Shown: positions 18,976 through 36,485 of the stretch, in pieces
How the letters are laid out: the number at the start of each line of letters is the position of its first letter
Numbering within the stretch: position 1 is the first letter of the stretch
Origin: Desulfovibrio sp. Marseille-P6017
GTDB taxonomy: Bacteria > Bacillota_A > Clostridia > Peptostreptococcales > Peptostreptococcaceae
DNA length: 64,000 bases
Reading direction: 5' to 3'
Assembly: GCA_900604495.1 (NCBI GenBank)
Contig: UWOR01000015.1
Coordinates: 1-64,000 of the forward strand
The notes under the pieces: generated by a model
The model's database searches: none
What the model was told of the DNA's origin: nothing
Seen by the model: the letters and a program-made list of their open reading frames with translations, nothing else
Position numbers and translations under genes: made by a program

Positions 18976-19836
18976 TTAGTATAAAATTGTTTTTGGCATA
19001 GCCCATCTAAATTTTCCTCTTGTTTCTGAACCACCAATTCCTTTATATCCAGTGACTGTCTGTTCTATAACTTCATCGATTGGTACAACAACATCTATTC
19101 TAGAGCAGGCTATTTTTTCTACTATAAATACTGGGTCTAGAGCATGAATCATTATTCTACCTGGTGAACTTGCATAGTTAGCACCTGATTTTATTATTTG
19201 TTCATAATTTGACTGACACGCTCCTGCAAATATTACAAGATTATCCACATTTGGTTCCCACTTTCTGGCTTCTTTAACAGCTTTTATAAAGTTTAATGAA
19301 TTTCTATAATTACTTAAGTCCTTTATATTTCCTTTTTTTGATGTAAGTGCATCGTGACCTGTAATTACCAATATATCTGGATTATGCTTTTCTAAAAGAC
19401 TTCTTACTTCTTTATATTGGTTTGCTTCAGATATAGAAACTCCAACAGCTGGTATTCCTAATTGAGTGTATACATCTAGGCATATCTTTAAATATTCTTT
19501 ATCTCCATCTATTTGAAGTACTTTACCTGGCATTCCATACATATTAGTATTTGATTGAGCTTTTGGTAATCCCCTCATATTTTTCTTTTGTCTTTCTCTA
19601 GCCTTTTTCACTGATCTATATAATAAATTTTCTACATTTCTATCTATTAAAATATCATTCATATCAGGCATCTGTACAATTTCTAGATCTTCTAAATATG
19701 CATCTGCTAAAACCCTAAATGCAACCCCTTTTAATACAGCTATTTTTTTATTATTTTCATCTATATTAAACCCAACTATCTTAAATATAATATCTTTATT
19801 ATATGACTTTCTCGCTACTATATCCCCTATTTTCAT
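18976..19836 (-). CDS. yabG: sporulation-specific protease YabG
   Basis: Cysteine-type protease that processes spore coat and cortex-related proteins in sporulating Firmicutes. The 286-aa protein opens MKIGDIVARKSYNKDIIFK and contains ILVITGHDALTSKKG and the conserved FAGACQSNYEQIIKSGANYA, followed by SSPGRIMIHALDP. The start is ATG 19836 after GGGAGG; an in-frame TTG at 19854 lies before the Shine-Dalgarno. It sits upstream of veg, as in many Bacillota. A sigma-K-like promoter is visible at 19869-19896. Confidence 0.95.
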   Translation of the reverse strand: MKIGDIVARKSYNKDIIFKIVGFNIDENNKKIAVLKGVAFRVLADAYLEDLEIVQMPDMNDILIDRNVENLLYRSVKKARERQKKNMRGLPKAQSNTNMYGMPGKVLQIDGDKEYLKICLDVYTQLGIPAVGVSISEANQYKEVRSLLEKHNPDILVITGHDALTSKKGNIKDLSNYRNSLNFIKAVKEARKWEPNVDNLVIFAGACQSNYEQIIKSGANYASSPGRIMIHALDPVFIVEKIACSRIDVVVPIDEVIEQTVTGYKGIGGSETRGKFRWAMPKTILY

Positions 19837-19868
19837 GACTGTCCTCCCAAGCAAAATTTATCTTACTT

Positions 19869-19896
19869 TATAATATGTCCATCAATGTTTTTTGTT
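19869..19896 (-). promoter_or_regulatory. putative sigma-K promoter of yabG
   Basis: On the minus strand: AACA (19893-19896), a 15-nt spacer, CATATTATA (19869-19877), matching CATANNNTA. YabG is under sigma-K in B. subtilis. Sigma-E has a similar -10, so the assignment is not exclusive. Confidence 0.5.
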
Positions 19897-20008
19897 CCTT
19901 ATTGATGAATATAAAACATTTTATTGTTGAAAAATAGAAAATATGGTGATAACATATTTTGAAACCAATACTTATAAAAATAAGTAATTATCTATTTGGG
20001 GTGATAAT

Positions 20009-20911
20009 ATGACTGACAGAGAAAAAGAAATTTTAAGTATCTTAAAAAAAAATCCATTAATATCTCAAAAAGAACTTGCATCCATACTTTCTATAACTAG
20101 GTCTTCCGTTGCTGTACATATAACAAATCTCATGAAAAAGGGTTACATTAAGGGAAAAGGATACATAATAAAAAAAGAAAACTATATCACTATAATTGGA
20201 GGTTCTAGTATAGATATTGAAGGGATGTCAAACAATAAACTAGTAATGTTTGATTCGAATCCTGGAAAGATAAACCTATCTGTAGGTGGCGCTGGTATGA
20301 ATTTAGCTGAATATATTCGTAAATTAGGATTTAATACAAAACTTATATCTGCAATTGGAAATGATTTGTATGGTAATACAATTTTATCAGAGTGTAAAAG
20401 TTATGGTATAGATGTAGATGATTGCTATATATCAAGTGATGATTCAACATCAATATATATATCAATATTCAATAATTTAAATGATATGCAACTTGCTATA
20501 TCTCATATGGATATTACAGAGAAAATCGATGTTAATTTTATTAATTCAAAGCATTCAGCTATAAGCGATTCTATTGCTATTATACTAGATACAAATTTAC
20601 CAGAAAAAACTATAGACTTTATAACAAAATTCTACTCTCATATTCCAATTTTAATAGACACTGTATCTTCTTCAAAGTGTATTAAAGTTAAAAATATGGT
20701 TGAAAGATTTGATTTTATAAAATTAAGTCAAAGTGAAGCTGAGATACTATCAGATATAAAAATTTATAATGAAGATGATATATCTAGATGTTGCAACTAT
20801 TTTTTAAATAAAGGAGTAAAGCGTGTATTTATAAAAATAGGAAAAGATAAATTTATTTCATCGGATGGAATTAACTTAGAAGAAACATTAAAGGAGCTAT
20901 CATTATGTTAG
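20009..20911 (+). CDS. winged-helix/PfkB protein related to pseudouridine kinase, lacking the catalytic C-terminus
   Basis: Residues 1-55 form a winged helix (EKEILSILKKNPLISQKELA, TRSSVAVHITNLMKKGYIKG), followed by a PfkB-fold domain with FDSNPGKINLSVGGAGMNLA, the substrate-side motif of pseudouridine kinases (usually GGVGRNIAE). The ORF ends at residue 300, just after FIKIGKDKFISSDG. Intact family members continue about 65-75 residues with the GAGD motif that holds the catalytic Asp, as in the gene at 33984-34943. The end overlaps the next gene by 7 nt. It is probably not an active kinase, and a sensor-regulator role is inference. Confidence 0.75.
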   Translation: MTDREKEILSILKKNPLISQKELASILSITRSSVAVHITNLMKKGYIKGKGYIIKKENYITIIGGSSIDIEGMSNNKLVMFDSNPGKINLSVGGAGMNLAEYIRKLGFNTKLISAIGNDLYGNTILSECKSYGIDVDDCYISSDDSTSIYISIFNNLNDMQLAISHMDITEKIDVNFINSKHSAISDSIAIILDTNLPEKTIDFITKFYSHIPILIDTVSSSKCIKVKNMVERFDFIKLSQSEAEILSDIKIYNEDDISRCCNYFLNKGVKRVFIKIGKDKFISSDGINLEETLKELSLC

Positions 20912-21660
20912 AAAAATATTTAAACATACATCCTGAAGTTCAAAAATCAATCTCTTTTGGCTACCCAGTTGTAGCCTTAGAGTCTCATTCAATCATCAAT
21001 ACTACTAATTACCCTAAGAATATAGAAGTTTCAAATAAAATTTGTGAAATTATAAGAAATAATGGGGCTATACCTGCTACAACTGCAATTATAAATGGAA
21101 TATTAAAAGTTGGACTTACTGAAGAAGAACTTAATATTTTATTAACTAACAGTAAAACTCAATCAGCAAGTATAACTGATTTACCATTTGCTATATCTCA
21201 TAGTTTAACATGTACTACAACACTATCTTCTGCTATAACAATAGCTAACCTAGCAAATATAAATGTACTTCTTACTAATAAGATAAATGGAATTTTTAAA
21301 ACAAACTATAATCAGATACAAGTTCCATCTGATTTACAAAAACTATGTTCTAATGAAATTTTTATTATATCTAATAAAGTAAACACTGATATGGATTTAG
21401 ACATTACATTAAATTACTTAGAGTCTCACAATATAATAGTTTTAAATAACAAAGCTGCAAAATATAAAATAAATTCTACATCTGAAATTTCAAAAATTTT
21501 TAAAATAAAAAAGGACTTAAATCTTGATGGTGGTTTTTTGATAATAAATTCAAATCTTATTGTAGACAGCGATGAAAATTCCCACATAAAACAACTTTAT
21601 ATTAATGCTGAATTAGCCTCTAAAATTGCTAGAGATATTTCACTTATATGCAAAAACTAA
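20905..21660 (+). CDS. degenerate pseudouridine-5'-phosphate glycosidase (PsuG) homologue
   Basis: The 251-aa protein aligns by eye to PsuG (about 305 aa) over PVVALES, NNGAIPATTAIINGILKVGL, DLPFAISHSL, SDLQKL and ITLNYLES. The Glu of VALES remains. Other key sites are changed: HGMPYP is NTTNYP, GGIGGVHRG is NKINGIFKT, and the Schiff-base Lys of CAGAKS appears to be Asn in SNKVNT. About 50 residues near the C-terminus are also missing. AAGGAG precedes the ATG, the frame is open, and the ORF overlaps the HTH/PfkB gene. A catalytically dead partner is likely; slow decay is the alternative. Confidence 0.75.
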   Translation: MLEKYLNIHPEVQKSISFGYPVVALESHSIINTTNYPKNIEVSNKICEIIRNNGAIPATTAIINGILKVGLTEEELNILLTNSKTQSASITDLPFAISHSLTCTTTLSSAITIANLANINVLLTNKINGIFKTNYNQIQVPSDLQKLCSNEIFIISNKVNTDMDLDITLNYLESHNIIVLNNKAAKYKINSTSEISKIFKIKKDLNLDGGFLIINSNLIVDSDENSHIKQLYINAELASKIARDISLICKN

Positions 21661-21723
21661 AAGGGTACTTCTCAGTTGAATTACTAAGATATTATTTCTT
21701 AATACTTCAATGAGAATACCCTT
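21661..21723. terminator. bidirectional terminator between convergent genes
   Basis: AAGGGTA/TACCCTT, TTCTCA/TGAGAA and TTGAA/TTCAA make a long hairpin with T-rich tails in both directions. It separates the PsuG-like gene from the SEC-C gene. Confidence 0.75.
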
Positions 21724-21744
21724 ATTTATTCCATTATATTCAAA

Positions 21745-22242
21745 TTATTTTCCACAACACTTCTTATATTTTTTACCACTTCCACATGGACAAGCATCGT
21801 TTCTTCCTACTTTGTCTTCTTTAACTATAGTCTTAGAGTTTTTGAAAGCCTTAGTTAATTCTTTTCTCTTCTCTACAGATAATATTCCTTCCCAACCTGG
21901 TAAAGTATGTAACCAGTGTGCTTCTACAGCTACCATGTTGTAGAATAATTTTTCGAAATCTATTTTAACAGTAACCTTAGTGTCAGCTTCTATAGATTCT
22001 AAATCTATATCTTCTTGTAAGCTTTCACTTATTCCATCTAAGAATCCCATTATGTATTCATTTGAAGTATTGAATTTTTCAGCTAACTCAGCTACAGTTC
22101 CTTCTAATACTTCTATTTTGTCGTTTAATATTTCATTGTATATAGTTGTCTCTACCTTTAAGTACTCTTCCCAGAACTTTATTTCAGCTTCTTGGCTGTC
22201 ATGGTTTTCACTTAAAGATCTCCATTCAGTAAATAAACTCAT
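21745..22242 (-). CDS. SEC-C motif protein
   Basis: A 165-aa protein with an N-terminal helical region and a C-terminal SEC-C zinc motif, [20 protein letters not shown], with the CxC and CC ligands intact. The same motif ends SecA and many stand-alone proteins. Its metal-binding role is known, but the function of this family is not. AGGAGGATT precedes the ATG. The usual Pro between the Asp and first Cys (NDPCPC) is Ala here. It is alone on its transcript as far as can be seen. Confidence 0.8.
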
Positions 22243-23263: not shown

Positions 23264-23935
23264 TTATTTATCAAACAAATTCCATGGAAGTTCTTTTGGT
23301 GGCTCACAAATAAACTCCATTTTTTCTTTTGTTGTAGGATGATCTATTTCTATTTTATAAGACCATAGTGCAATTTGTTGCCCAATTTTATTTACATTTT
23401 GACCATATCTTTGATCCCCAAATAAAGGATGTTTCCTACTTGCAAATTGAACTCTTATTTGATGTGGTCTTCCAGTTTTCAAATCTATTTGAACCAAACT
23501 AAAATTATTTTTAACTTGTAAAGTCTCATAATTTAATTCAGCATTTTTAGAATCTTTATGATTCTTATTTACAACACTGACCATATTAGTTTTTTTATTT
23601 TTATAAAGATAATCTTTTAAAGTATCTTCTTTTTTATTCATAGCTCCATGTATAACAGCTCTATATGTTTTTTTAAAACTTTTGTTTCTAACTTGTTCTG
23701 ATAATCTAGATGCTGCTTTTGAAGTTTTAGCAAATACCATTACTCCACCTACTGGTCTATCCAATCTATGTACTAATCCAATAAACACATTTCCTGGTTT
23801 ATTATATTTTTCCTTTACATAGTTTTTAAGAAGGTTAACCATATCCTTATCATTAGTGTCATCACCTTGTGATAGTATATTCACAGGCTTTTCTACAACT
23901 AATAGATGGTTATCTTCATATATAACTTTTACCAT
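23264..23935 (-). CDS. RluA family RNA pseudouridine synthase
   Basis: Isomerises uridine to pseudouridine in RNA. The catalytic Asp lies in VHRLDRPVGGVMVFAKT (about residue 55). KTYRAVIHG and LKTGRPHQIRVQFASRKHPL are the other family motifs. At 223 aa there is no N-terminal S4 domain, so it is a short member; the target RNA cannot be inferred. The start codon overlaps the stop of the methyltransferase gene by one base (TAATG), which implies translational coupling. Confidence 0.92.
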   Translation of the reverse strand: MVKVIYEDNHLLVVEKPVNILSQGDDTNDKDMVNLLKNYVKEKYNKPGNVFIGLVHRLDRPVGGVMVFAKTSKAASRLSEQVRNKSFKKTYRAVIHGAMNKKEDTLKDYLYKNKKTNMVSVVNKNHKDSKNAELNYETLQVKNNFSLVQIDLKTGRPHQIRVQFASRKHPLFGDQRYGQNVNKIGQQIALWSYKIEIDHPTTKEKMEFICEPPKELPWNLFDK

Positions 23936-24807
23936 TACTTACTCTCCCATCTTCCAAATATACCACATGGAAGAACTTTTCCATCTCTTGATGTTGGTAT
24001 TCCTATTTCTCCACCATATATATTACCACCCTTAGCTTTTCTAGCTACTGTAGCATCTAGTATATGTTCTAATATTATTGGAGATAAACCTGTTGTATAT
24101 GAGTTTATCAAGAAGAATAAAGGATTATCTGATAATACCTTAGTACATAAATCTACTAATCCATATAATTTTTCTTCTATTTGCCATACTTCTCCCTTAG
24201 GTCCTCTTCCATAAGATGGAGGATCCATTATTATAGCATCGTATTTATTACCTCTTCTTATTTCTCTTTCCACAAATTTAACAACATCATCTACTATAAA
24301 TCTTACTTTTCTATCTCCAAGTCCTGATGTGTGTAAGTTTTCCTTCGCCCAAGTAACCATACCTTTAGATGCATCTACATGACAAACTTCAGCTCCTGCA
24401 GCTGCACATGCAACTGTAGCTCCTCCTGTATATGCAAAAAGATTTAATACCTTTATAGGTCTTCCAGCATTTTTTATCTTTTCCATAGACCAATCCCAGT
24501 TAGCTGCTTGCTCTGGGAATAAACCTGTATGTTTGAATCCTGTTGGGCTTATATTAAATTTTAAATTTTTATAACTGATAGTCCACTTTTCAGGATATTT
24601 CTTTTTAGTTTCCCAGTGTCCTCCACCTCTTTCACTTCTGTGGTAATGACCGTGTGGATTTTTCCATAACCCACTTTCATTTCTAATCGGCCACATAACT
24701 TGAGGATCTGGTCTTCTTAATACTATATTACCCCAACGCTCTAATTTCTCTCCGTTACCCATATCTATAAGTTCATAATCTTTCCATTTATCTGCTAATA
24801 TTAACAT
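23935..24807 (-). CDS. SAM-dependent rRNA methyltransferase, RlmI/RlmK-like
   Basis: The 290-aa class I methyltransferase has the SAM loop VLNLFAYTGGATVACAAAGA (about residue 125) and the catalytic-side motif IIMDPPSYGRGPKGEVW (about 210), typical of RlmI-type m5C and RlmK-type enzymes. The N-terminal PUA domain of RlmI is not evident. It likely modifies rRNA, but the target base is not predictable. AGGAGGAAT precedes the ATG. It is coupled to the downstream pseudouridine synthase, so the pair is an RNA modification operon. Confidence 0.85.
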   Translation of the reverse strand: MLILADKWKDYELIDMGNGEKLERWGNIVLRRPDPQVMWPIRNESGLWKNPHGHYHRSERGGGHWETKKKYPEKWTISYKNLKFNISPTGFKHTGLFPEQAANWDWSMEKIKNAGRPIKVLNLFAYTGGATVACAAAGAEVCHVDASKGMVTWAKENLHTSGLGDRKVRFIVDDVVKFVEREIRRGNKYDAIIMDPPSYGRGPKGEVWQIEEKLYGLVDLCTKVLSDNPLFFLINSYTTGLSPIILEHILDATVARKAKGGNIYGGEIGIPTSRDGKVLPCGIFGRWESK

Positions 24808-26094: not shown

Positions 26095-29000
26095 TTACTT
26101 TGCTATATCATAAACTTCTAATCTAGATTTGTTTATTTGCTTTTTCTTAACACCCACTAAAGCTTTTAATGTATCTAAAGATGTCATTACTTCAGTTGAG
26201 AACTCAGTTGCAGTTCTTCTTATTTTAAATCCATCTCTAGTTGAGTCATTACCTTTTGTAGGAGTATTTATCACTATATCAACTTGTTTATTTCTTATTG
26301 CATCTAATATATTTGGTCTAGATTCCTCTACTCTATTGACTACAGTAGCTTCTATTCCATTTTCTTCTAAACTCTTAGCTGTTCCTGATGTAGCCACAAA
26401 TGTATATCCTAGTTCTTTCATATCTTTTGCTATTTCCATAAATTCAGCTTTATCATAATTATTTATAGTAGCAAGCACAACTCCTCTTTCATCAGACATT
26501 TGCTTTCCTGCACCTATAAATCCTTTATATAGCGCTTCTTCTAAAGTTTCCCCTACACCTAAAACTTCTCCTGTAGATTTCATTTCAGGCCCTAAACTTA
26601 CGTCAACTCTAGATAACTTAGACATAGAGAATACTGGAACTTTAACTGATATTAACTTAGGCTCTTTATATACTCCTGTTCCATATCCTAAATCTTTTAA
26701 CTTAGCTCCTAACATACATTGAGTTGCTAAATCAACAATTGGCACTTTACTTACCTTACTTATATATGGAACTGTTCTACTTGCTCTTGGGTTAACCTCT
26801 ATTATATATAATTCCCCTTGGAATTCTATAAATTGTATGTTAACCATTCCAAGTACGTTAAGCTCTAATGCTATTTTCTTAGTATAGTCTAATATTTTAG
26901 CTTTTATTTCATCAGATACATTTTGGCTAGGATACATAGTTATACTATCTCCAGAGTGAACACCAGCTCTTTCTAAGTGCTCCATTATACCTGGTATTAA
27001 TATTTCTTCTCCATCACAAATTGCATCTACTTCTATTTCTCTACCAGTTAAATACTTATCTATAAGTACTGGGTTTTTCTTATCTCTTTCAAATGCACTT
27101 TGTAAGTATGCTTCTAACTTATGCTCTTCATAAGTTATTTCCATACCTTGACCTCCAAGTACATAAGATGGTCTAACAAGTACAGGGTATCCTAATTTAC
27201 TAGCTTCCTCTATACCTTCTTTAACTGACCATACAGCCTTCCCTTTCGGTCTATTTATATTTAATTTTTCTAATAATTCATCAAACTTTTCTCTATCCTC
27301 AGCTGCATCTATATCTGCAAAATTTGTACCTAGTATTGGTATTCTCTTTTCATCTAAGAATTTAGCTAACTTTATAGCTGTTTGACCACCAAATTGCAAT
27401 ATTACTCCATCTGGTTGTTCTTTTTCTATTATGTTTAATACTTCTTCCTCTGTTAATGGTTCGAAGTATAATTTATCAGATGTATCGAAGTCTGTACTTA
27501 CTGTTTCTGGGTTGTTGTTAACTATTATAGTTTCTATTCCCATCTTTCTAAGTGCTTTAACACAGTGAACTGAACAGTAGTCAAACTCTATACCTTGACC
27601 TATTCTTATAGGACCAGAGCCTAAAACTACAACTTTTTTCTTGTCATTTACTACAACTTCATCATATTGCTCATAAGTTGAATAGTAGTATGGAGATAAT
27701 GCATCAAACTCCCCACCACAAGTATCAACCATCTTATATGCAGGCTTTATGCTATATAAAGTTCTTAATTCATAAACTTTCTCTGGACTTATTTTCATTA
27801 AGTCAGATATCCCCTTATCTGAGAATCCTTTTTTCTTTAATTCAAGAAGATACTCTTTAGTTAAGTCCTCTATCTTCATTCCTTTTAACTTTTCTTCTTG
27901 CTCTACTATCCATTTGAATCTATTTATAAACCACTTATCTACACCAGTGATTTGTTCTATCATATCTATTTTGTAGCCTCTTCTTATCATTTCAGCTAAG
28001 TCGAATAGTCTTTCATCATCTGGTACTACTATACTAGCCTTTAATTCTTCTAAGCTCTTTTCTTCAGAAGGAGCATGAACTAATGAGTATTTTCCTATTT
28101 CTAGAGATCTTATACCTTTAAGCATAGCTGCTTCAAAGTTACTTCCTATACTCATTATTTCACCTGTTGCCATCATCTTTGTTCCTAACTTTCTGTTAGC
28201 TTGCTTAAACTTATCAAATGGCCACTTTGGTATCTTAACTACTACGTAATCAAGAGTTGGTTCAAAACATGCGTAAGTTTTCTTTGTTACTGCATTTTCT
28301 ATTTCATCTAATGTATATCCTAAAGCTATTTTTGCTGCAACTTTAGCTATTGGATATCCTGTAGCTTTCGATGCAAGAGCTGAAGATCTTGAAACTCTAG
28401 GATTTATTTCTATTATTGCATACTCTAAACTATGAGGATTTAGCGCTATTTGAACGTTACATCCTCCTTTAACTTCTATTGCATTTATTATATCTATAGA
28501 TGCTTTTCTAAGCATTTGATATTCTTTATCGCTTAAAGTCTGGCTAGGTGCAACAACTATACTATCTCCTGTATGCACTCCAACAGGGTCTATATTTTCC
28601 ATGTTACATACTGTTATACAGTTTCCATTACCATCTCTTATTACTTCGTATTCTATTTCTTTCCAACCCTTTATACTTTTCTCAAGTAGTACTTGTTTAA
28701 CTGGACTTAATTGTAAACCTTGAGTAAGTATTTCTGTTAATTCTTCAACGGTTTCAGCTATACCTCCACCAGTTCCACCTAATGTGTATGCAGGTCTTAC
28801 AACTACTGGATATCCTATTTTATTTGCAAATTCTAATCCACTTTCTAAATCAGTTACTATATCACTTACTACTACTGGTTGATTTATTTGTCTCATTACT
28901 TCTCTGAATGTATCTCTATCTTCACCTTTTTTTATAGATTCAACAGATGTTCCTATTATTTCAACATTATACTTTTCAAGTATACCTGCTTCATGTAATT

Positions 29001-29301
29001 CAACAGCTAAATTAAGAGCAGTTTGACCACCCATTCCTGCTAATAAACTATCCGGTCTTTCTTTTTCTATTATTTTTTCTATAAATTCTATTGTTAATGG
29101 CTCTATGTATATATTATCTGCAATCTCTTGATCCGTCATTATCGTTGCAGGGTTACTATTTATTAATATAACTTCTACTCCCTCTTCTTTTAAAGCCTGA
29201 CACGCTTGAGTTCCTGAGTAGTCAAATTCAGCCGCTTGACCTATTATTATTGGCCCTGATCCCAGTACTAATGTCTTTTTTATACTCTCTATTTTAGGCA
29301 T
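26095..29301 (-). CDS. carB: carbamoyl-phosphate synthase large subunit
   Basis: Makes carbamoyl phosphate from bicarbonate, ammonia and two ATP. The 1068-aa protein has the full layout: first ATP-grasp unit (about 1-400), oligomerisation domain (400-550), second ATP-grasp unit (550-930), and a C-terminal MGS-like regulatory domain (930-1068). [19 protein letters not shown] and [19 protein letters not shown] mark the two duplicated halves. AAGGAGATT precedes the ATG. Third gene of pyrF-carA-carB, 38 nt after carA. No pyrK/pyrD/pyrE follows; a terminator ends the operon. Confidence 0.98.
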
Positions 29302-29339
29302 AATCTTAATCTCCTTAATCTCTTAAATATTTATAACAA

Positions 29340-30386
29340 CTATACTAATTCTAAGAATTTATCAAATACATAATCACTATCTTTTGGTCCAGGACAAGCT
29401 TCTGGATGATATTGTACGCTGTATATTGGTAATTCTTTATGTCTCATACCTTCCACTGTATTATCATTTAAGTTTATATGAGTAACTTCCATATTTTCTG
29501 GCATCTCACATACATAGTACCCATGATTTTGAGATGTTATAAATACTTTCCCTTCTTCTAAATCTTTAACTGGATGGTTCCCACCTCTATGTCCGAATTT
29601 AAGTTTTCCTGTTTTTCCACCTAATGTTAAAGCTAAAAGTTGGTGTCCTAAGCAGATTCCTACTATTGGCTTTTTACCTACTAATTCTTTTATATTTTCT
29701 ATTACTTCTTCTAAATCTTCTGGATCTCCAGGCCCATTTGATAAGAATATTAAATCTGGGTTTATAGATAATACTTCTTCTGGCTTAGTTAATGCAGGGA
29801 ATACTGTTACATCACAACCACGAGATGCAAATGATCTTAGTATATTTTGCTTAACACCAAAATCCATAACTGCTACTTTAGGTCCATTTCCTTCTATACG
29901 TTCTATTTCTTTTCTTGTTACTGTCTTTACTGCCTGTGTATTTGAGAAACTTTCTAACTTAGCCTTAACATCTTCTAATGAAGTATTTTCTAAAGTTATT
30001 ATTCCTCTCATTGTACCGTTATTTCTTAATATCTTTGTTAAAGCTCTCGTATCTATCCCCTCTAAACCGATTACTTTATTTTGCTTTAAGTATGTATCTA
30101 TATCCATTTCGCATCTAAAGTTATTAGGAGTGTCACTCTTTTCTCTTACTATAAATCCTTTTACATGAACACCTTTCGACTCAACATCTTCTAAATTTAT
30201 TCCATAGTTTCCTATAAGAGGATATGTCATTGTAACTATTTGACCATAGTATGATGGGTCAGTTAAAACTTCACCATAACCTGTCATTGATGTATTGAAT
30301 ACTACTTCCCCTACGCTATCCTTTAAATATCCAAAGGCTTTTCCCTCAAATATCGTTCCGTCTTCTAATATTAATTTACCCTTCAT
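29340..30386 (-). CDS. carA: carbamoyl-phosphate synthase small (glutaminase) subunit
   Basis: Releases ammonia from glutamine for CarB. The N-terminal CarA domain includes FNTSMTGYGEVLTDPSY. The C-terminal class I glutaminase has the nucleophile Cys in VGICLGHQLLAL (about residue 240) and the His/Glu pair in YSVQYHPEACPGP (about 325). The length of 348 aa is typical. AGGGGGTAGG precedes the ATG. It starts 12 nt after pyrF and shares the PyrR-type leader. Confidence 0.97.
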   Translation of the reverse strand: MKGKLILEDGTIFEGKAFGYLKDSVGEVVFNTSMTGYGEVLTDPSYYGQIVTMTYPLIGNYGINLEDVESKGVHVKGFIVREKSDTPNNFRCEMDIDTYLKQNKVIGLEGIDTRALTKILRNNGTMRGIITLENTSLEDVKAKLESFSNTQAVKTVTRKEIERIEGNGPKVAVMDFGVKQNILRSFASRGCDVTVFPALTKPEEVLSINPDLIFLSNGPGDPEDLEEVIENIKELVGKKPIVGICLGHQLLALTLGGKTGKLKFGHRGGNHPVKDLEEGKVFITSQNHGYYVCEMPENMEVTHINLNDNTVEGMRHKELPIYSVQYHPEACPGPKDSDYVFDKFLELV

Positions 30387-30398
30387 TTAACCTACCCC

Positions 30399-31115
30399 CT
30401 AAGCATTTTCTATTTCATTTACTATTTTTTCAGCTGCTTTTCTTGGATTTTCTGCTTTAGTTATAGGTCTTCCGACAACTAAGTAGTGAGCTCCTCTGTT
30501 TATTGCATCAGCTGGAGTAACAACTCTCTTTTGATCTCCTACTTCTGACGATGCAGGTCTTATTCCTGGACAAACTGTCACGAAATCTTTACCACAAGCC
30601 TCTACTATCTTATCAACTTCTTGAGCTGAGCAAACTATTCCATCTATTCCTGCTTCCTTAGCTAACTTAGCTCTCTTTATAGCTAATTCTTCTGTATTCA
30701 TGTTACATCCTATATCTTGTAAATCTTGATTGCTTAAAGATGTTAAAACTGTAACTCCAACTATTATTGGCTTTTCTATATTTAATTTTTCTGCTTCTTC
30801 TTTTGCAGCTAAAGCACACTGTCTCATACCTTCCATATCAGATACATGTATTGTCATTAACCATACCTTATCTCTTACTGCTGCTCTTACTGCACTTTGC
30901 ATCGTATTTGGTATATCGTGAAACTTAAGATCTAAGAATACTTTTTTTCCTTTTTCATTTAAGTAATCTACTGTTTTTCCTCTTGTTGCTACATATTGCT
31001 CTAAACCAACTTTAAATATATCTACACTATCTTCTAACTTATCTATTAACTCTCTAGCTTTATCAAATTCATTAGTGTCAATTGCAACTATTAATTTTTC
31101 TTTACCATTTCTCAT
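30399..31115 (-). CDS. pyrF: orotidine-5'-phosphate decarboxylase
   Basis: Last step of UMP synthesis. The 238-aa TIM barrel starts IVAIDTNEFDKARELIDKL. The catalytic Asp-Lys-Asp set is in VFLDLKFHDIPNTM (about residue 60). VCPGIRPASSEVGDQKRV and HYLVVGRPITKAENP are the phosphate-binding parts. AAAAGGAGAAGG precedes the ATG. It is the first gene behind the attenuator leader at 31151-31440. Confidence 0.97.
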   Translation of the reverse strand: MRNGKEKLIVAIDTNEFDKARELIDKLEDSVDIFKVGLEQYVATRGKTVDYLNEKGKKVFLDLKFHDIPNTMQSAVRAAVRDKVWLMTIHVSDMEGMRQCALAAKEEAEKLNIEKPIIVGVTVLTSLSNQDLQDIGCNMNTEELAIKRAKLAKEAGIDGIVCSAQEVDKIVEACGKDFVTVCPGIRPASSEVGDQKRVVTPADAINRGAHYLVVGRPITKAENPRKAAEKIVNEIENA

Positions 31116-31150
31116 ATGCCTTCTCCTTTTTAATAAAGCCTTTATCTAAT

Positions 31151-31187
31151 AAAAAAGTCCTTATACCTATAAAGAGGTATAAGGACT
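31151..31187 (-). terminator. pyr attenuator terminator 2
   Basis: On the minus strand AGTCCTTATACC pairs with GGTATAAGGACT, followed by a T6 run. It is the last leader element, about 35 nt before pyrF, and would be the main shut-off point when PyrR binds site C. Confidence 0.9.
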
Positions 31188-31227
31188 CTATCTAAACTTA
31201 ATTTTAAATCCATAATTAGTTTTTAGA

Positions 31228-31266
31228 TATCTTTCTCAGCCTCTCTGGACTATTTTAAAAGACTTT
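31228..31266 (-). promoter_or_regulatory. PyrR-binding anti-antiterminator site C
   Basis: The minus strand reads AGTCCAGAGAGGCTGAGAAAG, the conserved PyrR RNA loop (AGUCCAGAGAGGCU), within a weak stem GTCTTT/AAAGAT. UMP- or UTP-bound PyrR would stabilise it and favour terminator 2. Confidence 0.85.
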
Positions 31267-33983: not shown

Positions 33984-34943
33984 TTATTTATCAAATTTTA
34001 CTTCACTCCAAATTATATCATTTACGTACTTTTGAACTAAATCAAATCCCATCTCTGGATGAATAGTTTCTTCTGTAGATATAGTTATTGTAGACATTGA
34101 TATAGCAAACTTTAGTGTATCTATTAAGTTGCACTTGTTAGCATATCCATATGCTATACCTGCTACAAATGAGTCTCCTGCACCTGTAACGTTTACAACA
34201 TTTACATCATTAGCTTTAATTTTACCTTCTTCTACTCCATTATTGTAGTAGATTCCATCTTCATCTAATGTTATAAATACATTTTCTATACCTAAGTCGA
34301 TGAAGTATCTTCCTGCTTTTCTTAAGTCTTCATCATTTTTTATTTTCATTCCACACATTATTTCAGCTTCATATCTATTTGGCTTTATTGTATGGAAGTA
34401 TTTTATTAAATGTTTTACTTCTTTTGCTTTAGCCGCTGATACAGGGTCTAATATAAACTTAGTGTTTCCACTAAAGTTCTTTAATATATATTCTACTATA
34501 TCAGGTCTATCTGAATCTAGTATCATATATTCGGCGTTTCTTATTATATCAGCCTTAGAATCAATAAATTCAGTTGTAAATTTATCTATTATTTTCATGT
34601 CTACTACTGCAGACACCATTTCTCCGTGCTCGTCTAAAACGGCCATATAAGTAGGTGTATGTCCACCTTCTATAATTAATGAATTACTCATATCATAGTT
34701 CATTTGCTTAGAATGTTCTAGCATTGCTTTACCAGCTTCATCATCACCTAGGATAGATATAAACTGAGTATTAACTCCTACCCTTGACATACATTCAGCT
34801 ATATTTCTACATACTCCTCCGAATGATGTCCTTACTTTTCCTGGGTTAGAATCATTACATCTATAGTTACTATCTGTAAATCCACATATATCAAAAACTG
34901 ATACTCCGAAAACTAATGTATACCTTTGGTTATTTTCCATCAT
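33984..34943 (-). CDS. PfkB carbohydrate kinase, probable pseudouridine kinase
   Basis: A 319-aa ribokinase-fold enzyme. The motif CNDSNPGKVRTSFGGVCRNI (usually GGVGRNIAE) is characteristic of pseudouridine kinases. The catalytic PfkB signature VNVTGAGDSFVAGIAYG is intact near residue 250. Unlike many family members it has no N-terminal winged helix. No glycosidase partner (psuG) is adjacent; the only PsuG-like gene in the window is the degenerate one at 20905-21660. GGGAGGG lies 14 nt before the first of two adjacent ATGs. The specific substrate is inference. Confidence 0.82.
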   Translation of the reverse strand: MMENNQRYTLVFGVSVFDICGFTDSNYRCNDSNPGKVRTSFGGVCRNIAECMSRVGVNTQFISILGDDEAGKAMLEHSKQMNYDMSNSLIIEGGHTPTYMAVLDEHGEMVSAVVDMKIIDKFTTEFIDSKADIIRNAEYMILDSDRPDIVEYILKNFSGNTKFILDPVSAAKAKEVKHLIKYFHTIKPNRYEAEIMCGMKIKNDEDLRKAGRYFIDLGIENVFITLDEDGIYYNNGVEEGKIKANDVNVVNVTGAGDSFVAGIAYGYANKCNLIDTLKFAISMSTITISTEETIHPEMGFDLVQKYVNDIIWSEVKFDK

Positions 34944-35046
34944 ATCTTTTCGTACCCTCCCTAAGAATCACCTTCCCATTTTATCACATTCTTATGCTTT
35001 TTTTCTACATTTTTCGATTTTAAATTTCATTTATACAGATTTTTAC

Positions 35047-35079
35047 AAAAAAAATAAGGGTTAAACCCTTATTTTTTTA
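35047..35079 (-). terminator. terminator after the metH remnant
   Basis: AAATAAGGGTT and AACCCTTATTT pair, with a T run on the minus strand. Confidence 0.9.
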
Positions 35080-35086
35080 TTTTAAG

Positions 35087-36485
35087 TTAAAAACTAAGCT
35101 TTGCTATCTCAACTGCTGATTTTGCATCTTTTGAATAATAGTCTGCACCTATATTCTTAGCATATTCTTCTGTTAAAACAGCTCCACCTACAAAAACTTT
35201 TGTATCTATTCTATTTTCTCTTAAAACTTTTATAGTATTTTTAAGTGTTGTAGTCATAAATGCACTTAATCCTACAAGTTTTACATTATATTCTTTAGCT
35301 TTTTGTACAATATCCATTATAGGTACATCTTTTCATGAATCCATGACCTTATATCTATAATTTACTAACATTATCTTAACTATATTTTTTCCTATATCAT
35401 GAATGTTACCTTGTACTGTTGCTACAATTATTTTTCCTTTTGATATATTATTTTTATTTTCTTTTAATAAATGATCTTTAATTATATTTAAAGAAAATTT
35501 TACTGTTTCAGCTGATTTAATCAATTGAGGTGGAAATATCTACCCTAATTTTTACTTTTTACCTATTGTATCTAATGTTGGATTTATAATCATTTTTTGT
35601 TTTATGTAATTTTATATTGTTAATATTGTCACATATCTCTTTTATAAATTTTGGACTTGTTCCACAACATCCACCTATAATTCTAACTCCTAGCCTTATA
35701 AAAACTTCTACTCCTTTATAGAAATCTTTTTCATTCATATTATAATATGCTTTACCATCTATTATATTTGGCAATCCTGCGTTAGCTTTAACTATTACTG
35801 GAACTGTTGCTATTTTAGTTATCTTCTCAATTATAGGTATAAGTTTTTTAGGGCCTAAAGAGCAATTAACTCCTATTGCATCTACACCTAAGCTTTGAAT
35901 AGTTTCAACCATACTTTCTGGTGTACATCCTGTAAAGCTTCTTTCATCTTCATCAAAAGTCATTGTACAGAATATTGGTAACTCACTATTTTCTTTTGCT
36001 GCTAAAACTGCTGCTTTTGCCTCATATAGATCCATCATTGTTTCTATTATAATTAAGTCTACCCCTGACTTTACCCCTTGTATAACTTGCCTTTTAAATA
36101 TTTCATAAGCTCTATCAAAGCTTAATTTACCCGTAGGCTCTAACATTTATCCTATCGGGCCTATATCTAGTGCTACAAATCTAGGTTTAGAGTTATCTGC
36201 TTTTTCAATAGCCATCTTAGCAATTTTTATAGCACTATCTAAAACTTCTTCAACTGTATATCCTAATTTATCTAATTTTAATTCATTTGCTCCAAATGTA
36301 TTTGTTGTTATTACATTAGATCCTGCATCTAGATACATCTTATGGATTTTCATTAGTACTTCTGGATTTTTTAAGCCAAATAACTCTGGATTTTCTCCTA
36401 TTTCTAATCCATTTTGTTGGAGCATAGTTCCCATTGCTCCATCAAATATTAATATATTATTTTTAATATAATCTTTAATTTTCAC
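35087..36485 (-). pseudogene. metH: methionine synthase (cobalamin-dependent) pseudogene: two nonsense codons and a large internal deletion
   Basis: The homocysteine-methyltransferase domain is readable: ILIFDGAMGTMLQQNGLEIG, then a TAA where family members have Gln in DIGPIG-Q-MLEPTG (36147-36149), then on to VRIIGGCCGTSPKFI. The pterin-binding domain (about 270 aa) is missing. Reading resumes at PPQLIKSAETVKFS in the B12 cap and continues to IHDIGKNIVK, the cobalamin His motif. A TGA at 35333-35335 replaces a Gly codon, after which KDVPIMDIVQKAKE continues in the same frame. It follows luxS on the same strand by 25 nt. Confidence 0.92.

What the first reader, a model, noticed from the sequence alone, without database searches (positions are those of the whole stretch)
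20009..21660. Operon of an HTH-pseudokinase and a pseudo-PsuG, both missing catalytic residues
Seen: two overlapping plus-strand ORFs related to PsuK and PsuG. The first keeps its winged helix and substrate motif but ends before the GAGD motif. The second lacks the Schiff-base Lys, the GGIGG loop and a C-terminal block. Both have open frames and good translation signals, and they are not split by stops. Known: intact PsuK/PsuG degrade pseudouridine. Inference: the pair may have become a ligand sensor and DNA-binding regulator, for example controlling the intact PfkB kinase at 33984-34943. The alternative is coordinated decay.
Basis: partly seen in the sequence, partly recalled or inferred. Interest (0 to 1): 0.72.

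Follow-up and report, generated by a model that had tools for sequence, protein, structure and literature searches.

The report
Conserved dead pseudouridine enzyme pair
A bacterial gene pair that once made two enzymes for breaking down pseudouridine has lost the parts needed for catalysis but still looks maintained by selection, with its DNA-binding part kept best, so it may now work as a gene switch rather than as enzymes.

Summary
At 20009-21660 two overlapping plus-strand genes encode a winged-helix PsuK (300 aa) and a PsuG (251 aa), both without catalytic parts. The kinase did not simply end early: an in-frame internal deletion removed the GAGD/ATP part and left the tail carrying psuG's ribosome site. 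This is not one damaged strain. Eleven listed PsuG clusters (243-273 aa, window included) lack the Schiff-base lysine, which 149 of 149 listed full-length relatives have; they form a fast-evolving clade with a 293-aa form that keeps it. Three kinases with lost or altered catalytic motifs form another clade. Simple decay fits poorly: frames are open at about 55% identity, exchanges are conservative, and constraint has moved. HTH invariants are kept 33/34 against 74/112 in the rest of the kinase; in PsuG residues 1-75 are now best conserved and the catalytic region worst. Best reading: a pseudoenzyme pair kept for a non-catalytic role, most likely regulation led by the HTH protein; sensing of pseudouridine is plausible but unproven. 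Nothing links it to the PfkB gene at 33984. dN/dS could not be computed, because no relative's DNA was reachable, and the truncated kinase models poorly.

The parts
20009..20911 (+). HTH-PsuK-like pseudokinase, 300 aa
   Evidence: ORF; HTH_24 1-48 and PfkB 60-281 over Pfam cut-offs
20009..20170 (+). winged helix-turn-helix domain, residues 1-54
   Evidence: 33 of 34 family-invariant residues kept
20171..20863 (+). PfkB kinase body without the C-terminal ATP/GAGD part, residues 55-285
   Evidence: 10 of 12 pseudouridine-contact residues kept, 74 of 112 other invariants kept
20879..20908 (+). retained C-terminal tail EETLKELSLC after an in-frame internal deletion
   Evidence: alignment with P0122, 7 of 10 identical
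20890..20896 (+). AAAGGAG, likely ribosome-binding site of psuG, inside the kinase tail
   Evidence: sequence, 8 nt before the ATG
20905..21660 (+). pseudo-PsuG, 251 aa
   Evidence: ORF; PF04227 150.1 bits; AF2 model pLDDT 88 matches PsuG structures
20905..21129 (+). best-conserved part of pseudo-PsuG, residues 1-75
   Evidence: mean identity 0.72 among 9 pseudo-PsuG against 0.39-0.47 in the other three segments
21274..21303 (+). degenerate GGIGGVHRG active-site loop, residues 124-133
   Evidence: alignment
21382..21384 (+). codon AAC (Asn) at the position of Schiff-base Lys166
19998..20003 (+). GGGGTG, likely ribosome-binding site of the pseudokinase
   Evidence: sequence
19855..20008 (+). 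divergent intergenic region to yabG; promoter-like TTGAAA-17-TAACAT at 19927-19955; perfect inverted repeat 19969-19986
   Evidence: 12 promoter-like sites found in 19700-21900, 17.4 expected; repeat not significant: 819 of 2000 shuffles have one as long

Best explanation
The operon descends from a normal winged-helix PsuK plus PsuG pair. Both proteins lost catalysis in an ancestor and have since been kept by selection for a non-catalytic job. Most likely the HTH protein still binds DNA as a transcription regulator, with what remains of its kinase domain as a dimerisation and nucleoside-binding (pseudouridine or similar) module, and pseudo-PsuG, translated from the same message through the preserved overlap, serves as its partner or co-sensor. 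Shown: loss of catalytic residues, clades of such proteins, open frames, shifted constraint, preserved overlap. Inferred: DNA binding, the ligand, complex formation and target genes.
For: PsuG: K166 in 149 of 149 listed full-length relatives and 0 of 11 pseudo-PsuG; the 11 plus P0007 form a clade at 100/100 and the window's own subclade P0001-P0004 at 100/99, in a tree with 38 intact PsuG. Kinase: P0121-P0123 form a clade at 100/99 in a tree with 41 intact kinases; all three have NxxE Asn187 changed to Ser; the GAGD block is absent in P0121, GARD in P0122, NMKE in P0123. Neutral simulation: P(no stop) 0.03-0.055 for the window against P0002, at most 0.005 against P0003 and P0004, before counting frameshifts; exchanges more conservative than neutral single steps, z 3.4-4.7. 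Shifted constraint: HTH against kinase body, Fisher p 1.2e-4 for the window, 0.028 and 8e-4 for P0122 and P0123; HTH/body divergence ratio 0.29-0.36 between pseudokinases, median 0.62 between intact ones. PsuG residues 1-75 against the rest: p 2.6e-4 to 9e-5 in the four comparisons with P0003 or P0004, 2.5e-9 with P0027, against 0.83 for one intact pair; expected neutral missense rates are nearly equal in the two parts. N44, C47 and I195 are fixed in all 11. Pseudo-PsuG is predicted to fold: pLDDT 88, TM 0.88 (by query length) to 4gij. The intact pair is an ordinary operon in Acetoanaerobium noterae.
Against: The kinase model is weak: pLDDT 74 for the best of five, 55-60 for the rest, under 50 at 49-56, 67-91 and 146-166, where pocket residues lie. 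Pocket retention is not significantly above the rest. No significant operator. GC1 of both genes is 5th and 6th lowest of 57 ORFs, as in relaxed genes. The regional test is not significant for P0001 against P0002 (p 0.087) or P0005 against P0084 (p 0.057), and the stop-codon test against P0002 is marginal. The clade of the 11 alone has only 89/52. N44, C47 and I195 also occur in P0007, which keeps the lysine, so they do not depend on its loss. For the other ten pseudo-PsuG clusters the partner kinase was not identified. Protein databases list open frames only, so broken copies are under-seen.
Confidence: 0.45

Rival explanations
1. Slow coordinated decay: both enzymes are lost, residual selection acts only on the HTH (for instance to keep repressing something), and pseudo-PsuG is a passenger.
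For: Fast evolution and long branches, shrinking from 293 to 243 aa, low GC1, weak kinase model.
Against: Eleven listed pseudo-PsuG are open to the end (the database holds open frames only), which neutral drift to about 55% identity would rarely allow, and exchanges are conservative; strong regional constraint in PsuG residues 1-75.
Confidence: 0.27
2. The pair modulates an intact PsuK or PsuG elsewhere in the same genome, for example by forming mixed oligomers, as pseudoenzymes often do.
For: Pseudo-PsuG keeps its predicted fold; an intact PsuK-like kinase lies at 33984-34943.
Against: Whether this genome has an intact PsuG is unknown (no genome is held); the idea does not explain the retained HTH.
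Confidence: 0.15
3. Pseudo-PsuG became a different enzyme.
For: Glu31 and Asp149 are kept in the window; some substitutions are fixed in the clade.
Against: Active-site loop positions vary freely among the 11 (at H137: F, L, S, N, R, Y or a gap; alignments differ slightly there), with no new conserved polar set seen.
Confidence: 0.07
4. Assembly or strain artefact.
For: None found.
Against: An 80% identical PsuG of the same 251 aa is recorded from 14 contigs of other data (P0002).
Confidence: 0.02

Closest known systems
Winged-helix PsuK plus PsuG operon of Peptostreptococcales (HTH-kinase like E. coli YeiI, PRK09954)
   Same: Gene order, overlap or near contact, HTH-PfkB architecture; identity to intact members 61-66% for the kinase and 41-44% for PsuG
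   Different: 117 of 117 other listed kinases keep Asp256 and 149 of 149 full-length PsuG keep Lys166; this pair lacks both
E. coli PsuK (7vkp) and PsuG/YeiN (4gij)
   Same: Fold, 10 of 12 pseudouridine contacts in the kinase, Glu31 and Asp149 in PsuG
   Different: No catalytic Asp256 or ATP part, no Lys166; an HTH is added
FLN1/FLN2, PfkB-type proteins of the plastid RNA polymerase (PMC3409070, PMC4036507; seen as search listing and start of abstract only)
   Same: PfkB-family proteins with a role in transcription; their lack of sugar-kinase activity is recalled
   Different: Plant, no HTH, no PsuG partner (recalled)
Yeast Gal3 and bacterial ROK repressors such as NagC/Mlc (recalled; Gal3 papers seen as listing only)
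   Same: Regulators or sensors derived from sugar kinases
   Different: Other kinase folds; no second dead pathway enzyme in the same operon (recalled)

Membership tests
PsuG, pseudouridine-5'-phosphate glycosidase | PF04227 domain and PsuG fold | tested here: met
   150.1 bits, cut-off 25.2; predicted fold TM 0.88 to 4gij
PsuG, pseudouridine-5'-phosphate glycosidase | Schiff-base Lys166 (PMC7722734, passages) | tested here: not met
   Asn in the window; 0 of 11 in the clade
PsuG, pseudouridine-5'-phosphate glycosidase | Glu31 | tested here: met
   Glu kept in the window, lost in 7 of 11 of the clade
PsuG, pseudouridine-5'-phosphate glycosidase | Asp145 (metal site, recalled) and uracil-contact Asn289 | tested here: not met
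   Gln and His; the N289 column lies beside a deletion, so its alignment is less sure
PsuK, pseudouridine kinase | PfkB domain | tested here: met
   84.8 bits, cut-off 25.8
PsuK, pseudouridine kinase | GAGD motif with catalytic Asp256, and the ATP-binding C-terminal part | tested here: not met
   absent; NxxE Asn187 is Ser
PsuK, pseudouridine kinase | pseudouridine-contact residues (PMC9247573: section 7, and passages) | tested here: met
   10 of 12 identical; N14S and V42A differ
Transcription regulator | winged-helix domain | tested here: met
   HTH_24 47.1 bits, cut-off 21.9; 33 of 34 invariants kept
Transcription regulator | DNA binding and a regulated target | not testable with these tools
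   operator searches in the window gave nothing significant
Pseudoenzyme maintained by selection | dN/dS below 1 | not testable with these tools
   no relative's DNA reachable; protein-level substitutes used
Pseudoenzyme maintained by selection | conserved in several lineages after catalytic loss | tested here: met
   11 PsuG and 3 kinase clusters, window included; organisms mostly unnamed

The most novel reading that the evidence does not exclude
A whole two-enzyme catabolic operon has been turned into a two-protein regulatory device: a DNA-binding pseudokinase that binds free pseudouridine without phosphorylating it, and a pseudo-glycosidase partner, together reporting RNA-turnover products to gene expression.
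Probability: 0.25. Interest if true: 0.75.

Novelty: new variant of a known kind. Interest (0 to 1): 0.52.

Why it matters
Single pseudoenzyme regulators are known. A paired loss of catalysis in two successive enzymes of one pathway, with the gene overlap kept and constraint moved onto the DNA-binding domain and one end of the partner, did not appear in the titles and abstract starts listed by my searches (one search listed 15 of 1,026 papers, one search listed 12 of 30, one search found none). It would offer a graded series (P0007 with 293 aa and the lysine, down to P0027 with 243 aa) for studying how an enzyme operon becomes something else. A bacterial sensor of free pseudouridine would be new to me (recalled; not searched for as such).

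Tried and rejected
Control of the PfkB gene at 33984-34943: the exact palindrome occurs only at 19970-19985; matches with up to 2 mismatches are at chance level (22 found, mean 17 in shuffles), the palindrome itself is not significant, and the best ungapped stretch shared by 19855-20008 and 34944-35558 is matched or beaten in 55 of 60 shuffles. One search looked for repeats within each region only, not between them.

Pocket enrichment: 10 of 12 against 74 of 112, p 0.33. Kept only as 'compatible'.

Preferential loss of active-site residues in PsuG: window 3 of 12 kept against 54 of 121, p 0.23, not significant; p < 0.05 in 6 of 11 pseudo-PsuG. The 16-position site list is partly recalled (HAMAP/UniProt annotation); 12 of the 16 were invariant. 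Not used as main evidence.

DNA of relatives: the genome-contig scan gave one ordinary Lutibacter PsuG; viral contigs none; plasmids 65 and phages 6 records, all under 60% identity. Hence no dN/dS and no synteny test. The yabG query gave nothing in the Acetoanaerobium record, which the tool itself calls uninformative.

The lists show the best 120 of 778, 1549 and 7934 hits, so lower-ranked relatives were not seen.

Rows left out or chosen: P0007 (lysine kept) was counted apart; P0025 (295 aa) is outside the 149 and inside the 150; P0011 and P0093 (near-copies) are not in the segment means; the trees used 38 of about 150 listed intact PsuG and 41 of 117 listed intact kinases, picked by hand for spread.

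Full report
What is there. Two plus-strand ORFs, 20009-20911 and 20905-21660, overlap by seven bases. They lie between yabG (18976-19854, minus; Peptidase_U57), with veg and sipL beyond it, and a SEC-C protein (21745-22242, minus). ORF 1 carries an HTH_24 winged helix (residues 1-48) and a PfkB domain ending at 281; ORF 2 matches Indigoidine_A, the PsuG family. The closest solved structures by sequence are PsuG 4gij (1.7e-30) and E. coli PsuK 7vkp (3.4e-44).

Catalytic parts. Residue roles come from PMC7722734 (passages: Lys166 iminium, Glu31, Asn289) and PMC9247573 (passages, and section 7: pseudouridine contacts and Asp256). On an alignment with the E. coli K-12 proteins (locus) the window PsuG has Asn for Lys166, Gln for Asp145, Asn-Lys for Gly131-Gly132, Phe for His137 and His at the Asn289 column; it keeps Glu31 and Asp149. 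The kinase lacks the GAGD block and has Ser for Asn187 of NxxE, but keeps 10 of 12 pseudouridine contacts. Its last ten residues match the tail of P0122 at 7 of 10 positions, so the missing stretch was removed in frame from inside. That tail carries AAAGGAG, eight bases before the psuG start. PsuG likewise lost inner blocks and kept its C-terminal helix.

Relatives. The protein search for PsuG and a profile search show eleven clusters of 243-273 aa, window included, without Lys166, and P0007 with 293 aa and the lysine. Only P0027 bears a name, 'pseudouridine-5'-phosphate glycosidase' of a Peptostreptococcaceae MAG, which by its residues is a misnomer. All 149 listed relatives of 300 aa or more have Lys166. 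In a maximum-likelihood tree with 38 intact PsuG, the eleven plus P0007 form a clade (100/100) on a stem of 0.53, placed inside the intact PsuG of Romboutsia, Paraclostridium and kin by forks with 93/27 and 86/96; the eleven alone have 89/52, so a single loss of the lysine is likely but not firm; the window's subclade with P0002-P0004 has 100/99. The kinase search gave P0122 (378 aa, GARD) and P0123 (342 aa, motif gone); with the window they form a clade (100/99). The other 117 listed kinases keep Asp256. Intact HTH-PsuK plus PsuG is the ordinary arrangement, seen directly in Acetoanaerobium noterae and by equal contig lengths in at least ten listed pairs (inference).

Decay or maintenance. 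With no DNA of relatives, dN/dS was out of reach. Four substitutes were used. (1) Neutral mutation of the window genes to the observed protein identity leaves no stop in 3-5.5% of runs for P0002, at most 0.5% for P0003 and P0004, and at most 1% for the two kinases, before frameshifts (400 runs per setting). (2) The exchanges are more conservative than neutral single-base changes, z 3.4-4.7. (3) Constraint is uneven and has moved. The HTH keeps 33 of 34 family invariants against 74 of 112 in the rest of the kinase (p 1.2e-4). Among 13 non-redundant intact PsuG residues 126-180 are the most conserved of four segments (0.93); among 9 pseudo-PsuG they are the least (0.39), while residues 1-75 hold 0.72. 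Expected missense rates are nearly equal in both parts (2.58 and 2.49), and one intact pair shows no such difference (p 0.83); of nine pseudo-PsuG pairs tested, seven are below 0.05 and two are not (P0001-P0002 0.087, P0005-P0084 0.057). (4) Three replacements (Asn44, Cys47, Ile195) are fixed in all eleven and also in P0007, so they arose before or apart from the loss of the lysine. Points against maintenance: both genes have low GC1 and PsuG evolves fast. Databases list open frames, so broken copies are under-seen.

Structure. AlphaFold2 gives pseudo-PsuG a confident PsuG fold: pLDDT 88, TM 0.88 by query length on 4gij. The truncated kinase is less convincing: pLDDT 74, the other four models 55-60; much of the HTH and the later half are fair, but segments 49-56, 67-91 and 146-166 are below 50, and the last two hold Ser83 and Tyr150 (E. 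coli Ser30 and Tyr97). It still matches PsuK best (TM 0.66).

Mechanism. The most likely reading is a non-catalytic pair led by the DNA-binding protein. That both proteins are dead is close to certain from the residues. That both are maintained is likely (about 0.8, my judgement). That the HTH protein regulates transcription is likely given its retained winged helix; that it senses pseudouridine is only compatible with the data. The partner's role rests on its constrained first 75 residues and the kept overlap. The suggestion that it controls the PfkB gene at 33984-34943 has no support: opposite strand, about 12 kb away, and no shared element beyond chance.

Novelty. Regulators built from dead sugar kinases are known (Gal3, ROK repressors, plant FLN proteins; partly recalled, listings). 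Among the papers listed by my searches for PsuG or PsuK pseudoenzymes or regulators none describes such a pair in its title or abstract start. I rate it a new variant of a known kind.

Noticed in passing
35559-36485 (-): A gene that looks like homocysteine S-methyltransferase (by recalled motifs; no family search made) is cut by one in-frame TAA in an otherwise open frame, an example of ordinary gene damage in the same window.
   Followed up: partly
33984-34943 (-): Intact PsuK-like kinase without HTH, with GAGD and 10 of 12 pseudouridine contacts (Val for Asn14, Asp for Asn143). The ORFs listed on either side are not PsuG-like by eye.
   Followed up: partly
23264-23935 (-): An RNA pseudouridine synthase (PF00849) lies 1.6 kb from the end of the pseudo-operon, next to a methyltransferase gene at 23935-24807.
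   Followed up: no
31149-31266 (-): PyrR-binding RNA element (Rfam RF00515, 66.5 bits), upstream on the minus strand of minus-strand ORFs at 26095-31115.
   Followed up: no
L003 4831-9543: In Acetoanaerobium noterae the intact HTH-PsuK and PsuG genes are followed directly by a ClpB-like gene (named by eye); the 2.6 Mb record is labelled a plasmid.
   Followed up: no
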